Assembly: GCA_001799395.1 (NCBI GenBank)
Contig: MGTJ01000096.1
Coordinates: 67,246-131,245, forward strand
Reading direction: 5' to 3'
Length of the DNA stretch: 64,000 nt
Source of the DNA: Desulfobacterales bacterium RIFOXYA12_FULL_46_15
Lineage (GTDB): Bacteria > Desulfobacterota > Desulfobacteria > Desulfobacterales > Desulfobacteraceae
This document shows positions 43,596 through 51,531 of the stretch, piece after piece. The notes beneath the pieces are model-generated. The model saw only the letters and a list, made by a program, of their open reading frames with translations. It searched no databases and was not told the origin of the DNA. How positions within the stretch are numbered: position 1 is the first letter of the stretch; the number at the start of each line of letters is the position of its first letter. Made by a program: the position numbers and the translations under genes.

Positions 43596-46145
43596 TCATG
43601 GATGGATGGCATTTCCATCCTTTTGGGAAAGGATAGAACCCAGTTTCAAGGCAAGCTCCTTGATGGAAAAAGGTTTCTGTATGAAATTCACCCCCTCCTT
43701 TAAGACACCCCTTTCCGCAATAACGTTTTCCGTATAACCCGACATAAACAATACCTTCATTTCAGGTCTGGCATGTGTAATGGTTTCAAAGAGCATCTTC
43801 CCGTTCATCCCCGGCATCACGACATCGGTTAGCATCAGATGGATCACCCCTTTGTGGCTTTTTTCGACTGCCTGGGCTTCCAGCGGAGTCCCTGAAGACA
43901 ATACGGCATAGCCCAGTCTTGCTAATGCAGAACATATGAGCTGCCGTATTGTTTCTTCATCTTCCACCACCAGGATTGTTTCCCCATGGGGAGGCCAGGG
44001 GGTTGCTTCGGGTTTCTTTTTCCCTGCAGTCTCCTTTGTTCCGGATACCGGAAAATAGATTTTAAAAACAGTGCCCTGCAAAGGCTCACTATAGACCCAT
44101 ATGCTCCCCCCATGTTGCCTGACGATGCCGTAAACAGTGGACAAACCCAACCCCGTGCCCTTACCGGGCCCCTTTGTCGTGAAAAAGGGTTCGAAGATCA
44201 TCTGCCTTGTTTTTTCATCCATGCCGCAGCCTGTGTCGGCCATTGCCAGCATCAGGTATTCTCCTGGCCTGACATCCAGCTTTTCCGCAGTATGTTCCAG
44301 GTCAAGGGTTACCTTCCCTGTTTCTATGGTCAGGGTTCCTCCATCCGGCATGGCATCCCGGGCGTTAACGGCAAGATTGAGAAGGATCTGTTCCATCATC
44401 CCGGGATCTGCATTTATGTGGGGAAGGCTCTCCCCCAACACCATTTTGATGGAGATATCTTCTCCGATCAGCCGTTTTATCATCTTGGCAAAACCGGTAA
44501 TGACGGTATTGATGGAAAGATTGCTCATCTCAAGAATCTGTTTGCGGGCAAAGGCAAGAAGCTGGCGGGTCAAACCCTTGGCCCGTTCTGCAGCTTGCAG
44601 GATTTCTTCCAGATCTTTGTGCAAAACACTGCCTGACGGGGTGTCGTCAAGGCCAAAATTTGAGTACCCTATGATTACAGCCAGCATATTGTTTAAATCA
44701 TGGGCGACGCCGCCTGCAAGGCGGCCCACGGATTCCAGTTTCTGGGATTGCCGGAGTTGTGCCTCCAAAGACCTCTTTTCTTTTTCAATCTTTTGTTTTT
44801 CCGCCGTGATGTCCCTGGCAATACTGGAAGCACCGACGATCCGTTTATTGTCATCGCGAATCGGTGAGACCTGCAGGGAAACATTTAATAATTTACCTTC
44901 CTTGGTTATCCAGACTGTTTCGACCTGATCCACAGACCGCCCTGCTTTTATCTTATCCAGCATACGGGGCATTTCATCAGGCTGATCCTGTGGTGAAAGA
45001 AAGGAGATATGCTTTCCCAGGACCTCGCTCTCATCGTAGCCGTAGATACGTCCGGCACCCTGGTTCCAGCTTACAATTATCCCTTCCAGGCTCTTGCCGA
45101 TAATGGCATCATCCGATGATGCGACGATACGGGCCATTCTTTGCAAAGCCATTTCAGACTTCTGCCGCGCTTCCCGGATACGGGCATTGAAAATCGCCAT
45201 GGAGCAAACCTCGGTCAAAGGCAGTGCCAGTATCAGGTAACGCTCTTTATAATCCGGAAAAGCCAGGTTATCTATTTCCAGAATGCCCAGGCTGGTTTCT
45301 TTGTATCCCAGGGGGATGACAAATCCGCAACCTGACGCTGTCCAGGCAAATTTATCTTTGGTCCTGAGCACCGGGCATTCCTTATTATTGCCGGCCGGGA
45401 AATAATTCAGGCGGCCCGGGGCGAAAAGCAGGTTGAACAGTTCTTTAATATGGTCAATGGCTTCTTTTTCACTGTTGGAAGCAATGAGAACATTTATCAA
45501 ATCGATGGCCATCAATTGATCGGTAAAAAACTGATCCGGGGGGGGCAGGGATTTCTGGTTCTGCTGCAGTTTCATCACCAGATGTTCCAGGGAAAGCCTG
45601 AGCATATCCAGGCCCACGGGAATGGATCGGACCGGCAGATCAAGATACTCACCCATTGCCGATAACGCGTCAAGGCAATTGTTGTCGACCCCGGTATCGA
45701 ACAGAATCAGTTCTCTTGTGGTTTCCCGGAAAAATTGTCCGGCCGTTTCCTGATCAAATCCCCAGTCCTTTATGTGCTGCCGCCAATTCGACAGCCAGCC
45801 GGGAGTCATCAGATAAGCGCCCCCGGCTATCAGGCCGTCGACCAGGGTTGCCGGTGCCACGAGGTGAAAACAGATCCGGGTTGCCGGTATAATGATATTT
45901 GAATGGTTTTCACTTGTTGAAGGCAGGGCATCGAAACACCCGCCGCTGATGATCAGACCGGGGCCTTCAGTCTGATTTGGAAAAAGGTGAGCCCGGGTTG
46001 CCCGGTCTTTCTGAAAATTTTGACGGCAGGAAAACGCATGGGTTTCAACCCGGAGCCCGGACAGCTCCCGGGAACCAGCCACCACTGCCTCTATCTCCTG
46101 CAGGAAATAAGAACAACACCAGAGTTTCATGTCACATTTCATCAA
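43596..46145 (-). CDS. Hybrid sensor kinase: DUF1638-like, GAF-like, PAS, HisKA/HATPase, REC
   Basis: N-term CSYFLQEIEAVV…GGAYLMTPGWLSNWRQHIKDWGFDQETAGQFFRETTRELILFDTGVD; PAS IVASSDDAIIGKSLEGIIVSWNQGA; HisKA LAGGVAHDLNNML; ATPase GTGLGLSTVYGIV; REC VVEDEETIR, LTDVVMPGMNG. Confidence 0.88.
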   Translation of the reverse strand: MMKCDMKLWCCSYFLQEIEAVVAGSRELSGLRVETHAFSCRQNFQKDRATRAHLFPNQTEGPGLIISGGCFDALPSTSENHSNIIIPATRICFHLVAPATLVDGLIAGGAYLMTPGWLSNWRQHIKDWGFDQETAGQFFRETTRELILFDTGVDNNCLDALSAMGEYLDLPVRSIPVGLDMLRLSLEHLVMKLQQNQKSLPPPDQFFTDQLMAIDLINVLIASNSEKEAIDHIKELFNLLFAPGRLNYFPAGNNKECPVLRTKDKFAWTASGCGFVIPLGYKETSLGILEIDNLAFPDYKERYLILALPLTEVCSMAIFNARIREARQKSEMALQRMARIVASSDDAIIGKSLEGIIVSWNQGAGRIYGYDESEVLGKHISFLSPQDQPDEMPRMLDKIKAGRSVDQVETVWITKEGKLLNVSLQVSPIRDDNKRIVGASSIARDITAEKQKIEKEKRSLEAQLRQSQKLESVGRLAGGVAHDLNNMLAVIIGYSNFGLDDTPSGSVLHKDLEEILQAAERAKGLTRQLLAFARKQILEMSNLSINTVITGFAKMIKRLIGEDISIKMVLGESLPHINADPGMMEQILLNLAVNARDAMPDGGTLTIETGKVTLDLEHTAEKLDVRPGEYLMLAMADTGCGMDEKTRQMIFEPFFTTKGPGKGTGLGLSTVYGIVRQHGGSIWVYSEPLQGTVFKIYFPVSGTKETAGKKKPEATPWPPHGETILVVEDEETIRQLICSALARLGYAVLSSGTPLEAQAVEKSHKGVIHLMLTDVVMPGMNGKMLFETITHARPEMKVLFMSGYTENVIAERGVLKEGVNFIQKPFSIKELALKLGSILSQKDGNAIHP

Positions 46146-47184
46146 AACCTATCCAGTCCAGAGGGTATTGCCCCCATCGGCGCACGGTTTCGGCAATTGT
46201 TAAAAGGATGTCCTCATCCACCGGGAAGGGGATCTCACCATGATTGTCCGACAAGACAAATCCTCCTCCCGGACCAGCCTGGGCAATGGCTTTCTTGATT
46301 TTGGATTCGATTTCCCCGGCAGTCCAATACCGCATATCGAGTGCGTTCAGGTTTCCGACCAAAGCCAGTCTGCCTCGGCAGGCGTCCTTTAACGCCCCCA
46401 GATCTTCCTCGGCACTGGCACTCATTGCGACAAAGCCTGCCCTGGAAATTTCGTCCACAACCGGCAAGCCCTTTCCTGAAGCCATATGAATCATTACAGA
46501 TCCTTTTATACGGGAAATAACGTTCACAGCCGTCGGCACCCCATACTGCAAAATAAGATCCCGGGACATGATTGCCGGAGAAAAAGCAGGGTCGGAATAC
46601 ATGACGGCTGCGGCCCCGGCCTCAAGTTGGGCATTGGCCCAGGCAGTACAGTATTCGGTGTTGATCCCGAGAAGACGTTCAAGCAGATCCGGACGTTCAT
46701 ATATCAAATCCAGATACGCCTCGAATCCCATCTGCATAATGGGAAGGGAGAAGGGTGAGACAATGACCCCGGCGATGGGGGTATCGCCTCCGACAATCGC
46801 CTTAAGCCCGGCTATTGCTTCCAGAACCCCCTGGAGGGCCGGATTTTTTTTAACTTCAGGCGGTTCAAGAAAAAAGATATCTTCAGGTTTTTTGATGATG
46901 GGCGGACCGGCATTGGGCGGTCCCTGATCGAAATAAATTGCTTCTCCGCCCCAGGCCAGGATCTCCAGGGCTGCAAAGGGATAGCAGCAGAGCATATCGT
47001 TGCCGAATTTTTTATGAAGCCAGACCTGTCCATCTACCACGTTCTGAGGCCTGGAAAAATACGCTTTAATCGTGAGTCCCATTTCCCTTGCCGGATGCAT
47101 GGCAGCAGAAATCACATAGGGAACCCTGTCCGGTTCCCTGTGGGAAAGGGTTTCCTGTAATCTTTGACTGGAAGTCATTCCCAT
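46132..47184 (-). CDS. Uroporphyrinogen decarboxylase-superfamily methyltransferase (MtaA/CmuA-like)
   Basis: RLQETLSHREPDRVPYVISAAMHPA…; overlaps the corrinoid protein gene. Confidence 0.82.
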   Translation of the reverse strand: MGMTSSQRLQETLSHREPDRVPYVISAAMHPAREMGLTIKAYFSRPQNVVDGQVWLHKKFGNDMLCCYPFAALEILAWGGEAIYFDQGPPNAGPPIIKKPEDIFFLEPPEVKKNPALQGVLEAIAGLKAIVGGDTPIAGVIVSPFSLPIMQMGFEAYLDLIYERPDLLERLLGINTEYCTAWANAQLEAGAAAVMYSDPAFSPAIMSRDLILQYGVPTAVNVISRIKGSVMIHMASGKGLPVVDEISRAGFVAMSASAEEDLGALKDACRGRLALVGNLNALDMRYWTAGEIESKIKKAIAQAGPGGGFVLSDNHGEIPFPVDEDILLTIAETVRRWGQYPLDWIGFDEM

Positions 47185-47816
47185 ATCCGATTCTCCATTA
47201 AGGTGTGAATAATTCTTGCCGCTTCACCGGAATTGCGGCCCATGTAATGAGCCCCGGCTTCTTTTTGGAGCAGGGGGGCAAGACGAAAAGGAGCCCCGCC
47301 GACCACCACGACAGTCCTGCTGCCTGCCTTCTCAAGCCCTTCCACCACGTCCTTTACATGCAGTGCAGACGTCAGCATGAGACAGGAAAGAAGAAGAATA
47401 TCCACTTTGTCCTGAAGCGTTTTCTCAACCAGATCATCAGCCTTAAGGCCGTGCCCGTAATCCAGCAGATTGTATCCGGAAGAGCGAAGCGTCGATAAGA
47501 CCATGCGCTTGCCCAGGGCGTGGTAGTCCCCTATCACACCGATGGCCAGTCTTGGACGGTCATATAGAGAGGGGCCGTCAACATTAAGCAACTCTCCTAT
47601 GATTTTTTCGCAGATCCGTCCGGCCATGTAGACCTGGGAAAGCGATATACGGCCTTTCTCCCAGGCAAGACCAATAGATTCCAGGGCTGGAATCACCACA
47701 TTCTCAGCCGGGATCAGGCCGTCTCCCTGTGATGACTGGGGTTTGAGCAAGATCCTGCACCTATGTTCATCCATATGTAGAAGGGCATCTGCGAATTGTT
47801 TGGATATCTTATCCAT
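47175..47816 (-). CDS. Corrinoid (B12-binding) protein, MtaC/MttC-like
   Basis: Helical cap then GVIGDYHALGKRMV (DxHxxG), LLSCLMLTSALHVKDVVEGLEKAG, VVVGGAPF. Confidence 0.88.
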   Translation of the reverse strand: MDKISKQFADALLHMDEHRCRILLKPQSSQGDGLIPAENVVIPALESIGLAWEKGRISLSQVYMAGRICEKIIGELLNVDGPSLYDRPRLAIGVIGDYHALGKRMVLSTLRSSGYNLLDYGHGLKADDLVEKTLQDKVDILLLSCLMLTSALHVKDVVEGLEKAGSRTVVVVGGAPFRLAPLLQKEAGAHYMGRNSGEAARIIHTLMENRIWE

Positions 47817-47926: not shown

Positions 47927-49795
47927 TCAGCACGCGACTTGTGTCAGATCAATGGTCAAGGCATAGACGCCCTGCTCCATTTTTGCCTGGACCGGGAAAG
48001 GACCGTTTTCAAAAACTTTAAGCATGGCCCGGTTTGAGGCCAGGACATCAGCGGTTAACCCAACGGCACCTCTTTCTTTTGCAAGTTTTGCCAGCATCTG
48101 GTAGAGGTAGGTGGCAATGCCGCATCCCTGGTAGGCTTCATCCACGACAAAGGCAATGTCCACAAAGGGTTTATTCCTGTGCCGGGCGAATCTGGCTTCG
48201 GCAATCAGGGTCTGCTGGCCGGGTTCGCCGGTGAAGGCCACGATGGAGAGGACGTCCCGGTAATCCACATTCACGTATTCCTGCATTTTTTCATGGGGCA
48301 TGGTTTTAATGGGGCTGAAATACCGGTAATAGATGGCTTTGTCGGAAAAACGGTAGAAAAGCCGTCTCATCTGGTCCTCATCAGAGGGTTTGATGGCTCT
48401 GAACCGGACATTGAGATTGTTTTTAAAGGTGTGCCGGGTTTCAATTTCAGAAGGATAGAAATGGGCGCTGTCAGCCAGGAAAATCTGGTCTTTGTATAGA
48501 ATATTGATTTTTTTAGCACCTTCCAACAGAAGGGGCCGGTCTTCGGGGTAGGCGATTTCGATGAGGGCCTGGGCCCTTTCCCTCAAAGTCCTGCCCCTCA
48601 AATGGGCAATACCCTGTTCCGTGACCACAAGATCAATGGATTCGGGAATGCTTAAGAGATCGGGCTGATCTTCCACTGATACCCGGATATTGGGTTTTCC
48701 ATCCCGGTTGCGGCTGGGAAGGGCAACCATAGTATACCCGCCCTGGGAAATCTCGGCACCATTGAAAAAATCGGCCATCTGACCCGGTCCTGCCGTGACA
48801 TTGGCAGTGCTGTTGTGCAGCACCACACGGCTGGACAGGTCCACCCTCCGGACCGGAAGAATGAATACAAACCTGTGATTCCGCCCGATTTCCATGGGGG
48901 TGAAGACCTTGTCAATGCTCTGGAATTCAACCATGGGGTTTTTGTCCAGAAACTGCATCAGTTCTTTGGTGCCACAGGCATAAGCTGCCAGGGATCTTCC
49001 CCGGAAAAGCCCTTTTCGCCTGTTGGTGACGGCCCCGCTTTTTACGAGGTCCATGACAGCATCGGTAAAAAAAGGACTGTGAATACCCAGATCTTTTTTG
49101 TGGAAGAGGTATCTGGGAAGGGCCTCAAAAATCGGGCCAAAGGTAAATGCAAGACAGGACCCATCCTCTATGACCGATGCGATATTGGCGGCCAGTTTGT
49201 CAAAGACCGGGTCTACGGGAAATCTGGGGAAATAAAAAGGCGGGTTTGCGGATTCAATGACCATGTCAAAATCATCAAAGGGAACAAAGGTATCCCCAAT
49301 GGTAAACGGGGTATCAGGGTTGATTTCTCCCACCACAAGGCTTGCCTGTTCCATGGCCCTTCTGGCCACATCAACACCTACGCCCAGGCTGCAATACCCG
49401 GCCTGGTTGGGTGGGGTAATCTGGATAAAGGCGATATCAATGGGGATATGACCGTCTTTCATGAGCTGGGGGATGGCTGAAAACCGGGACGGTACCAGAT
49501 CCACCTGCCCTGCGGCAATGGCTTCAGCAGACACCCATCCTGAAAAAAAGGTCTTCAGGCGGTACCGTTTGGATTGAAGGGCTTTATAGGAGATGGCATC
49601 CCCGAAGCTGACAAGCTGGATCAGGGTCAGGTCCTGGAGGCCGGGGCCTTTCTCATTCATGAGGCAGTTGACCAGGGTCCTGGGTTCGGCCGCGCCCGTA
49701 CCGATAAAGATATTCATGCCAGGCTCGATTTTGGCTAAAACATCTGCCGGGGAAACCAGCTTTTTTTTCCATGGGGGTATTTTTTTTAGAAACAT
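47927..49795 (-). CDS. Acetyl-CoA hydrolase/transferase fused to GNAT acetyltransferase
   Basis: CoA-transferase region (VTEQGIAHLRGRTLRERAQALIEIAYPEDR) plus C-terminal GNAT (VDEAYQGCGIATYLYQMLAKLAKERGAVGLTADVLASNRAMLKVF). Confidence 0.9.
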   Translation of the reverse strand: MFLKKIPPWKKKLVSPADVLAKIEPGMNIFIGTGAAEPRTLVNCLMNEKGPGLQDLTLIQLVSFGDAISYKALQSKRYRLKTFFSGWVSAEAIAAGQVDLVPSRFSAIPQLMKDGHIPIDIAFIQITPPNQAGYCSLGVGVDVARRAMEQASLVVGEINPDTPFTIGDTFVPFDDFDMVIESANPPFYFPRFPVDPVFDKLAANIASVIEDGSCLAFTFGPIFEALPRYLFHKKDLGIHSPFFTDAVMDLVKSGAVTNRRKGLFRGRSLAAYACGTKELMQFLDKNPMVEFQSIDKVFTPMEIGRNHRFVFILPVRRVDLSSRVVLHNSTANVTAGPGQMADFFNGAEISQGGYTMVALPSRNRDGKPNIRVSVEDQPDLLSIPESIDLVVTEQGIAHLRGRTLRERAQALIEIAYPEDRPLLLEGAKKINILYKDQIFLADSAHFYPSEIETRHTFKNNLNVRFRAIKPSDEDQMRRLFYRFSDKAIYYRYFSPIKTMPHEKMQEYVNVDYRDVLSIVAFTGEPGQQTLIAEARFARHRNKPFVDIAFVVDEAYQGCGIATYLYQMLAKLAKERGAVGLTADVLASNRAMLKVFENGPFPVQAKMEQGVYALTIDLTQVAC

Positions 49796-49800
49796 GGGGT

Positions 49801-51531
49801 TTAGGGGCTCTTCAGTGTTTCAATATTATTCCTGGCAAATTCAATGTCAGGGTCAATTTCAAGGGCCATTTCATAATACTGGACAGCCAGCTTTTTGTCC
49901 CCCAGTTCCCTGTAGCAGGACCCGATATTGGCATAATCAAGGGCAAGGGAAGGGTCGATTTCCAGGGCGTTTTCAAAACAGGCCATGGCAGCTTGATAGT
50001 CTTTCTGCATAAAATGGGAAAAGCCCATGGTATTAAACATATCCGGCCGCTGGGGGTCGATTTCAAGACCATGCTTGCAGGTTTCAACAGCTTTTTCATA
50101 TTGCCGGAGGTCTTTCTGGCAGGCCCCCATATGGGAATAGATATCTGGCAGGTTCATCCGGACAGGATCTCTTTTCAGAGCGGTTTCAAATTCTTTTAAG
50201 GCATTTTCCAGGTTTTCCATAGCAACGTGCATGAGCCCCCTGTAAAAGCTGGTGTAGTATTGTCCGGGCAGGGCTTTTTCCAGGGCGGAAAGTTTTCGCA
50301 GAGCCGGTGCCGGATCATAATTTTCCGTGATGAGTCTTGCCGCAAACATGCCCACGCCGGCAGAGGCTGCTCTTTCCCTGAAATGGGCACCGGGGATGAC
50401 TGCATAAAAGGCCGGGATGCCAAGATCGGCATGTTTCGTGTTGATGGCCAGAATCTCGTATCCCCTTTTTTCAAGAACCTCTATCAGGTTTTCAACCTCG
50501 GTTTTGATATTCCTGCTGGAAAGGTCCGGCAGATCTTTTATGGAGACCATTTTTTCAGGATGGGTGATGAATCTTGCATCCTCTATGTGCGTGAATTTGG
50601 GCAGGCCGCTGGCTACATAATTGGAGCCGGTATTAAAATCTCCTGCAAGCTGGGCTGTTTCGGTCAATGCCCGGCTCATGGCCTTTTCCGGGTCAGGGGA
50701 GGTTCCGGCAGTCCAGACGATTTCACTCATGGAAGGAAAAGTGGACGGGTCATAAGCCAGAACCCCGACCGTGGGGACGCCCGTGTCAAGGGAAAAATCC
50801 GAAGCATAGACTTCTATACCGTTTTTTTTATATTTTCCCAGCATTTCAATGACCAGGGGATCGGTAAAAGAATCAAGACGGATGCCCGGAACCTTTATCC
50901 GGCCATGGCTGACAAGGGAGGAGGTATGACGCTCCACCAGCTCACAGATACCCTGGCTCAACGCTTCTTCCGTACAGTTCCCGGCACTGGGGCCGTTGAA
51001 TTCATTGATCATGTAAAACCAGTTGAACGGGATCAAAACTTCTTTTTTCCGGGTGAGATTATACCCCATGGTCCACTTTAAAGGGAGGTCATCAAACACG
51101 GGTTTGACCTTAAAAGCATCGGTTTCATTGTCATGCACGGATTTAATGATCTGATCAAAGGGCAGTGCCTTGTCTCCGAGCTGTCTTGGTGTTGAATAAA
51201 AAAAGTTTTTTTCATTTTTGACAAAGGAAAAAAAACTGAACCGCTCGGCCAGCTCCATGACGGCGCTGGCTTCGGACTGGGCCGGGGTTCCGCCTTTACC
51301 CATCTGTTTTTTTGTGCCGATCACATCAATGGCATCCATGCCGCATTCACTGAAAAACACGGGGATATCCAGCCTTCCCTTATCAATCCGCCTTGTCCGG
51401 CTCAGGATATCAAGATTCAGCCGGGCGGTTTTTTCTTTGAATGCAGCCACGGTGTCTTCCGGGGATATAATCTTGTCCTGGTCATAGGTATAGCCTTTAA
51501 AGGCATCCTTTAATTCAACGGTATAGGTCAT
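49801..51531 (-). CDS. YcaO-like protein with C-terminal TPR repeats
   Basis: SEASAVMELAERFSFF, FNGPSAGNCTEEALSQGICELVERHT, ALTETAQLAGDF; about four TPRs at the C-terminus. Confidence 0.9.
   Translation of the reverse strand: MTYTVELKDAFKGYTYDQDKIISPEDTVAAFKEKTARLNLDILSRTRRIDKGRLDIPVFFSECGMDAIDVIGTKKQMGKGGTPAQSEASAVMELAERFSFFSFVKNEKNFFYSTPRQLGDKALPFDQIIKSVHDNETDAFKVKPVFDDLPLKWTMGYNLTRKKEVLIPFNWFYMINEFNGPSAGNCTEEALSQGICELVERHTSSLVSHGRIKVPGIRLDSFTDPLVIEMLGKYKKNGIEVYASDFSLDTGVPTVGVLAYDPSTFPSMSEIVWTAGTSPDPEKAMSRALTETAQLAGDFNTGSNYVASGLPKFTHIEDARFITHPEKMVSIKDLPDLSSRNIKTEVENLIEVLEKRGYEILAINTKHADLGIPAFYAVIPGAHFRERAASAGVGMFAARLITENYDPAPALRKLSALEKALPGQYYTSFYRGLMHVAMENLENALKEFETALKRDPVRMNLPDIYSHMGACQKDLRQYEKAVETCKHGLEIDPQRPDMFNTMGFSHFMQKDYQAAMACFENALEIDPSLALDYANIGSCYRELGDKKLAVQYYEMALEIDPDIEFARNNIETLKSP

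What the first reader, a model, noticed from the sequence alone, without database searches (positions are those of the whole stretch)
43596..47816. Coupled operon: corrinoid protein, URO-D-fold methyltransferase and a DUF1638-like hybrid sensor kinase
Seen: three minus-strand genes with overlapping stop/start (47175-47184 and 46132-46145). Gene 1 has the DxHxxG B12 motif, gene 2 is a URO-D-superfamily protein, gene 3 is an 849-aa hybrid kinase. The first ~210 aa of the kinase (CSYFLQEIEAVV…AYLMTPGWLSNWRQHIKDWGFDQETAG…LILFDTGVD) resemble stand-alone DUF1638 proteins, which I recall as frequent neighbours of corrinoid methyltransferase genes. Inference: the operon couples C1/methyl-corrinoid state to phosphorelay signalling, with DUF1638 as the possible input domain. 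I know of no described signalling system of this architecture.
Basis: partly seen in the sequence, partly recalled or inferred. Interest (0 to 1): 0.82.

Follow-up and report, generated by a model that had tools for sequence, protein, structure and literature searches.

The report
Corrinoid-methyltransferase cassette wired to interchangeable signalling outputs
Three overlapping genes make a vitamin-B12-type protein, a methyltransferase-like partner and a signalling kinase, and the same trio, with different signalling ends swapped onto the same sensing end, recurs in many unrelated bacteria and in two archaeal MAGs, so it looks like an undescribed B12-based sensing system.

Summary
Window 43596-47816 (-) is a tightly overlapping corrinoid-protein / URO-D / hybrid-kinase operon, and the kinase N-terminus passes Pfam's DUF1638 cut-off (30.6 vs 27 bits). 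The adjacency is not accidental. A search with only the kinase N-terminus gave 18 neighbourhoods in the order, of which 15 carry both partner genes directly upstream. A search with only the URO-D protein gave 80 loci in about 15 phyla: 77 have the corrinoid gene next door or fused, and 77 have a DUF1638 and/or GAF-like sensor gene directly downstream. The decisive point is that the DUF1638-GAF N-terminus stays constant while the output changes: HisKA-HATPase(-REC, -Hpt), GGDEF, PAS-GGDEF or HD-GYP. The DUF1638-GAF part is therefore an input module, with the corrinoid/URO-D pair as its dedicated partners. Best reading: the pair sets the state (methylation or Co redox) of a dedicated corrinoid, and the DUF1638-GAF domain reads it. 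That last step is inferred. Cautions: DUF1638 is missing in 14 of 80 loci while the GAF-like domain persists; the URO-D lacks the HxC...C zinc site of MtaA-type enzymes; 20 of 47 cassette genomes show no RamA-type reactivase. No description was found in open-access literature.

The parts
47175..47816 (-). Corrinoid protein (213 aa): B12-binding_2 cap plus B12-binding domain; nearest solved relatives MttC (7xcn) and MtmC (3ezx)
   Evidence: D/H/G of DxHxxG invariant in all 72 relatives of sufficient length
47511..47528 (-). DYHALG = DxHxxG, cobalt lower-ligand motif (residues 97-102)
46132..47184 (-). URO-D superfamily protein (350 aa), nearest solved methyltransferase MtaA (4ay7); 10-nt overlap with the corrinoid gene
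46486..46488 (-). His233 in HMA: keeps the His of the MtaA zinc motif HxC, but the Cys is Ala; the second Cys is replaced by the DNHGEIP stretch
   Evidence: H, A and DNHGEIP at least 95% conserved in 81 URO-D sequences
43596..46142 (-). Hybrid sensor histidine kinase DUF1638-GAF-PAS-HisKA-HATPase-REC (848 aa from ATG 46142; 11-nt overlap with URO-D)
45543..46142 (-). DUF1638 domain (aa 1-200) with near-invariant C10, E16, C39, C69, C91
   Evidence: Pfam 30.6 bits; conservation; AlphaFold pTM 0.85
45138..45542 (-). GAF-like domain (aa 201-335), not called by Pfam; present in every sensor long enough to judge except one DUF1638-only ORF (L136)
   Evidence: AlphaFold model matches GAF domains in PDB
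44802..45110 (-). PAS domain
   Evidence: PAS_9 65 bits
44538..44726 (-). HisKA dimerisation/phosphoacceptor domain, His481 in GGVAHDLNN
44046..44408 (-). HATPase_c domain with N and G boxes (NLAVNARDAM, DTGCGM, GTGLGL)
43650..43976 (-). Receiver (REC) domain, Asp773 in LTDVVMPG

Best explanation
The three genes are one sensory cassette. The URO-D-fold protein binds a small molecule (most likely a methylated compound) and changes the state of a dedicated corrinoid protein, by methylating or demethylating its cobalt or by changing its redox or ligation state. The corrinoid protein then docks on the DUF1638-GAF N-terminus of the third protein, where the conserved Cys set (C10/C39/C69/C91) may hold a metal or Fe-S centre. 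This switches the attached output: here PAS-HisKA-HATPase-REC, so His481 to Asp773 to an Hpt or response-regulator partner encoded elsewhere. Shown: gene structure, domain content, conserved cassette, constant input with interchangeable outputs, intact corrinoid-binding motif. Inferred: physical docking, the corrinoid state as the signal, the nature of the ligand and of any metal centre.
For: Reciprocal conservation. Searching with the kinase N-terminus alone gave 18 fetched neighbourhoods in the order: corr and URO-D directly upstream of the sensor in 15, corr and URO-D present in L075 but no sensor ORF called, URO-D only in L074, neither in L076. Searching with URO-D alone gave 80 loci: corr adjacent 76 plus 1 fused, sensor directly downstream 77. 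Output swapping: HK, HK-REC, HK-REC-Hpt, GGDEF, PAS-GGDEF and PAS-GAF-HD-GYP on the same N-terminus; on the URO-D tree the 8 GGDEF/HD-GYP loci need 8 changes (backbone weakly resolved). Co-divergence: corr-URO-D identity r=0.68, DUF1638-GAF 0.69, corr-DUF1638 0.64, versus 0.36-0.48 with the HK domain; permuted maximum 0.28. DxHxxG invariant in 72 of 72, URO-D pocket residues near-invariant at 61% median identity. Flanking genes are signalling genes (REC 17, HATPase 15 of 103), with no corrinoid methyltransferase among the 25 commonest families. DUF1638 has genetic ties to corrinoid chemistry: PGA1_c13340 is cofit with the split B12 methionine synthase and RamA (PMC5764234); SPO2162 is more abundant on N-osmolytes (PMC12478193); a DUF1638-hydantoinase(ASKHA) fusion lies next to MttB genes.
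Against: No biochemical data. DUF1638 is undetectable in 14 of 80 loci although the GAF-like domain stays, so DUF1638 cannot be the sole reader. The MtaA zinc ligands HxC...C are absent, so thiol-dependent methyl transfer is unlikely. 20 of 47 cassette genomes show no RACo/RamA C-terminal domain, so a turnover cycle with standard reductive reactivation is not universal (some of these MAGs are incomplete). No known methyl donor or cognate response regulator is linked to the window operon.
Confidence: 0.6

Rival explanations
1. Redox or corrinoid-supply sensor: the dedicated corrinoid reports low redox potential, oxygen or cobamide availability directly (Co(I)/Co(II) or upper-ligand change); the URO-D protein is a binding or loading partner without methyl transfer.
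For: Zinc-thiol catalytic site missing; RamA-type reactivase not detected in 20 of 47 hosts; hosts include methanotroph, Beggiatoa-type and magnetotactic MAGs typical of redox gradients; GAF plus conserved Cys set.
Against: The URO-D pocket is among the most conserved parts, which suggests a specific small-molecule ligand; corrinoid proteins of this type normally serve methyltransferases.
Confidence: 0.25
2. Catabolic corrinoid methyltransferase operon with a co-transcribed kinase that merely regulates it (the first two genes are the metabolic enzymes).
For: The gene families are those of demethylation pathways; the host genome has other corrinoid/URO-D/RACo genes.
Against: The cassette stands alone, flanked by signalling rather than C1 genes; outputs include GGDEF and HD-GYP; the order is corr, URO-D, sensor across many phyla.
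Confidence: 0.1
3. Chance adjacency of unrelated genes, or a spurious DUF1638 match.
For: The Pfam score is only a little above cut-off in the window copy (30.6 vs 27).
Against: relatives score up to 48 bits in the sensor class; shared Cys/Glu/Trp/Gly positions with stand-alone DUF1638.
Confidence: 0.01

Closest known systems
MsmS and RdmS, sensor kinases of Methanosarcina acetivorans (RdmS described as methyltransferase-associated)
   Same: PAS/GAF kinases linked to methyl-sulfide methyltransferase genes; redox sensing (PMC6944256)
   Different: They use heme or thiols, lack a phosphorylatable His and REC-type partners (PMC6944256, PMC11784639); as described there, not a corrinoid + URO-D cassette with DUF1638. 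The window kinase has H-box and REC.
B12-based photoreceptors/regulators CarH, AerR, and the cobalamin-binding GGDEF protein of PDB 8j2y
   Same: A B12-binding fold of the same superfamily drives a regulatory output
   Different: In those, from general knowledge, the B12 domain is part of the regulator itself; here the corrinoid protein is a separate methyltransferase-type protein with a URO-D partner, and the sensor carries DUF1638-GAF.
DUF1638 proteins next to split MetH/RamA (P. inhibens PGA1_c13340)
   Same: Same domain family, tied to corrinoid activation (PMC5764234); Cys10, Glu16, Cys69, Cys91 shared with stand-alone DUF1638
   Different: Not fused to signalling domains; stand-alone members sampled have Leu-His where the sensor class has Cys39.
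Methylcobamide:CoM methyltransferase MtaA/MtbA and MtaA/CmuA family
   Same: URO-D fold, nearest solved structure 4ay7
   Different: Below NCBIfam family cut-offs (89.6 vs 235.4 bits); zinc motif HxC...C replaced

Membership tests
DUF1638 (PF07796) | Pfam profile score above the curated cut-off | tested here: met
   30.6 bits vs 27; 33.8 bits by genome search
DUF1638 (PF07796) | Family-conserved residues Cys10, Glu16, Cys69, Cys91, Trp116 (window numbering) | tested here: met
   against 9 stand-alone and 10 hydantoinase-fused members (Glu16 is Asp in the hydantoinase-fused ones)
Methyltransferase cognate corrinoid protein (MtbC/MttC/MtgC type) | Cap plus B12-binding domains with DxHxxG | tested here: met
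Methyltransferase cognate corrinoid protein (MtbC/MttC/MtgC type) | NCBIfam pyl_corrinoid or MtgC/MtbC cut-offs | tested here: not met
   66.5 vs 215.3; 62.4 vs 370; 60.4 vs 350: a separate subfamily
MtaA/CmuA methyltransferase | Zinc ligands HxC...C | tested here: not met
   HMA...DNH in the cassette; two other URO-D proteins of the same genome keep HIC...C
MtaA/CmuA methyltransferase | Methyl transfer activity | not testable with these tools
   needs enzymology
Hybrid histidine kinase | HisKA His, HATPase motifs, REC Asp | tested here: met
MsmS/RdmS-type kinase | No phosphorylatable His | tested here: not met
   His481 present; definition from PMC11784639/PMC6944256
CarH-type B12 regulator | B12 domain fused to a DNA-binding domain | tested here: not met
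   Corrinoid protein has only cap and B12 domains

The most novel reading that the evidence does not exclude
A widespread class of signal transduction in which a corrinoid protein and a URO-D methyltransferase act as a dedicated sensory front end: cobalt methylation of the corrinoid by an environmental methyl donor is the signal, read by a metal-binding DUF1638-GAF module plugged onto kinase, diguanylate cyclase or c-di-GMP phosphodiesterase outputs.
Probability: 0.4. Interest if true: 0.92.

Novelty: new variant of a known kind. Interest (0 to 1): 0.82.

Why it matters
It turns a hint of one odd operon into a conserved cassette in bacteria of many phyla and two archaeal MAGs, in which a corrinoid/methyltransferase-type pair appears to serve sensing rather than metabolism. 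It gives the uncharacterised DUF1638 family a concrete, testable role (reader of corrinoid state, with a candidate Cys ligand set), and c-di-GMP or phosphorylation readouts make the missing input directly assayable.

Tried and rejected
Chance adjacency was rejected by searches in both directions. The ~940-aa DUF1638 frames common in the order were suspected to be kinases, but the one scanned (L081) is a DUF1638-hydantoinase A (ASKHA) fusion near MttB and FAD oxidoreductase genes, and none of the nine such frames fetched showed HK matches, so PF07796 counts overstate the sensor class. The search for related loci with the DUF1638-GAF alignment failed for lack of a conserved stretch; the URO-D alignment was used instead, which also removes selection on the sensor. 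Dependence on RamA-type reactivase was tested and not general. No Rfam element near the operon; promoter and terminator scans were at shuffle level. DUF1638 alone gives a confident model (pTM 0.85) but no trustworthy PDB fold match (best E-value hit has TM 0.21-0.26).
Full report
Check of the observation. The three minus-strand genes are present as described. Corrinoid gene 47175-47816 (213 aa) overlaps URO-D 46132-47184 (350 aa) by 10 nt; URO-D overlaps the kinase by 11 nt if the kinase starts at ATG 46142. Pfam supports each assignment, and the kinase N-terminus passes the DUF1638 cut-off (30.6 vs 27 bits, aa 68-183). The remainder is PAS-HisKA-HATPase-REC with intact H481 and D773. The region between DUF1638 and PAS is not called by Pfam, but its AlphaFold model (mean pLDDT 86.8) matches GAF domains in the PDB. 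It is the only DUF1638 in this genome.

Is the linkage real? Two searches that do not share a query answer this. (a) The kinase N-terminus (aa 1-337) against 390 genomes of the order matched 47 genomes, 18 distant relatives with substantial DUF1638 coverage among them. In the 18 neighbourhoods fetched, 15 have a ~215-aa corrinoid gene and a ~350-aa URO-D gene directly upstream of the sensor in the same order and strand; in L075 corr and URO-D are present but no sensor ORF was called, L074 has URO-D only, L076 neither. (b) An alignment of the URO-D proteins against 85,462 species genomes found 362 relatives; the best 80 were fetched. With HMMs built here, 76 have the corrinoid gene immediately upstream and one has it fused; 77 have a gene with DUF1638 and/or the GAF-like domain directly downstream. 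The three without a sensor are one with a different gene (L102), one at a contig end (L112) and one odd or truncated locus (L151). The record titles fall into 15 groups at phylum level, e.g. Thermodesulfobacteriota, Pseudomonadota, Chloroflexota, Nitrospirota, Rifleibacteriota, Planctomycetota, Bacteroidota, Spirochaetota, Synergistota and two archaeal MAGs (individual MAG contigs may be misbinned).

What the third gene is. The same N-terminus carries different outputs: HisKA-HATPase-REC, HK alone, HK-REC-Hpt, GGDEF (L068, L071, L074, L099, L117, L119, L124, L133, L165), PAS-GGDEF (L123) and PAS-GAF-HD-GYP (L100). On the URO-D tree the 8 GGDEF/HD-GYP loci of the set require 8 changes, although many backbone branches are poorly supported. 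A constant N-terminus with exchanged outputs is the signature of a sensory input module. Pairwise identities co-vary most between corr and URO-D (r=0.68), DUF1638 and GAF (0.69) and corr and DUF1638 (0.64), and less with HK (0.36-0.48); permuted maximum 0.28. In L093 and L140 DUF1638 is a separate ~190-aa gene followed by GAF-HK. In 14 of 80 loci DUF1638 is undetectable while the GAF-like domain is present; in ten of these the GAF-like protein has no output domain attached in the ORF found (one of them is cut by the contig end). The class scatters widely over the URO-D tree, and the window copy falls in a well-supported group of 8 that includes two Riflebacteria.

What the first two genes may do. 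The corrinoid protein keeps D, H and G of DxHxxG in 72 of 72 sequences and is nearest to MttC and MtmC structures. The URO-D protein is unusually conserved (median pairwise identity 61%), with near-invariant pocket residues including H233 and DNHGEIP (residue numbers there are one lower). The MtaA zinc motif HxC...C is absent, whereas two other URO-D proteins of the same genome have it. Thiol-directed methyl transfer is therefore unlikely; transfer from a methylated substrate to cobalt, or ligand binding without catalysis, remains open. In 20 of 47 cassette genomes the RACo/RamA C-terminal domain was not found, although the window's own genome has several. Flanking genes include many two-component proteins (17 with REC and 15 with HATPase among 103), with no corrinoid methyltransferase among the 25 commonest families.

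DUF1638. Across 60 sensor-type sequences C10, E16, C39, C69 and C91 are at least 90% conserved (51 sequences). In 9 stand-alone and 10 hydantoinase-fused DUF1638 proteins C10, C69 and C91 are invariant, while the C39 position is Leu followed by His. A 3-Cys plus His/Cys set suggests a metal or Fe-S site; this is inference. Transposon fitness data tie a DUF1638 protein of Phaeobacter inhibens to a split B12 methionine synthase and a RamA-like reactivase (PMC5764234), proteomics tie SPO2162 to growth on N-osmolytes (PMC12478193), and in this order a DUF1638-hydantoinase fusion lies beside two MttB genes (L081). No solved structure has a related sequence and no convincing fold match was found.

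Mechanism. Most likely the corr/URO-D pair converts the presence of a small molecule into a state of the bound cobamide, and the DUF1638-GAF module reads that state and controls the output. Shown: cassette, modularity, retained corrinoid motif. Inferred: docking, the signal and the metal site. The main rival is direct redox or cobamide-supply sensing without methyl transfer.

Comparison with what is known. MsmS and RdmS of Methanosarcina acetivorans are the closest functional analogues, but they use heme or thiols and lack a phosphorylatable His. CarH, AerR and the cobalamin-binding GGDEF protein of PDB 8j2y are B12-based regulators in which, from general knowledge, the B12 domain belongs to the regulator itself. 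Full-text searches of open-access papers found three papers naming DUF1638, none as a signalling domain in the passages read, and none describing this cassette; subscription papers and preprints were not searched.

Noticed in passing
L136:1183-6259: A second, divergent cassette directly upstream of a window-type one in a Hyphomicrobiales MAG: corrinoid and URO-D fused in one 663-aa protein, a stand-alone DUF1638 (90.6 bits, with the canonical Leu-His), then PAS-HisKA-HATPase-REC.
   Followed up: partly
L081:4167-6989: DUF1638 fused to hydantoinase A/ASKHA ATPase (940 aa), a frame length common in the order, next to an FAD oxidoreductase and two MttB genes; possibly a corrinoid reactivase.
   Followed up: partly
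L156:8166-13042: Corr/URO-D/GAF cassette without DUF1638, followed by a 1354-aa pentapeptide-repeat class I adenylate cyclase.
   Followed up: no
window 49804-51531 (-): YcaO-TPR protein with sub-threshold similarity to the methanogen McrA-glycine thioamidation YcaO (TIGR03266, 130.8 vs 365 bits), in a bacterial genome.
   Followed up: no
window 47930-49795 (-): Acetyl-CoA hydrolase/transferase fused to a GNAT acetyltransferase related to Pat (71 bits), directly upstream of the cassette; not seen next to the related cassettes examined.
   Followed up: no
G000:C225:8604-26846: Cluster of three URO-D, two corrinoid and one RACo gene in the same genome: a likely methyl-compound catabolic locus and candidate target of the sensor.
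   Followed up: no
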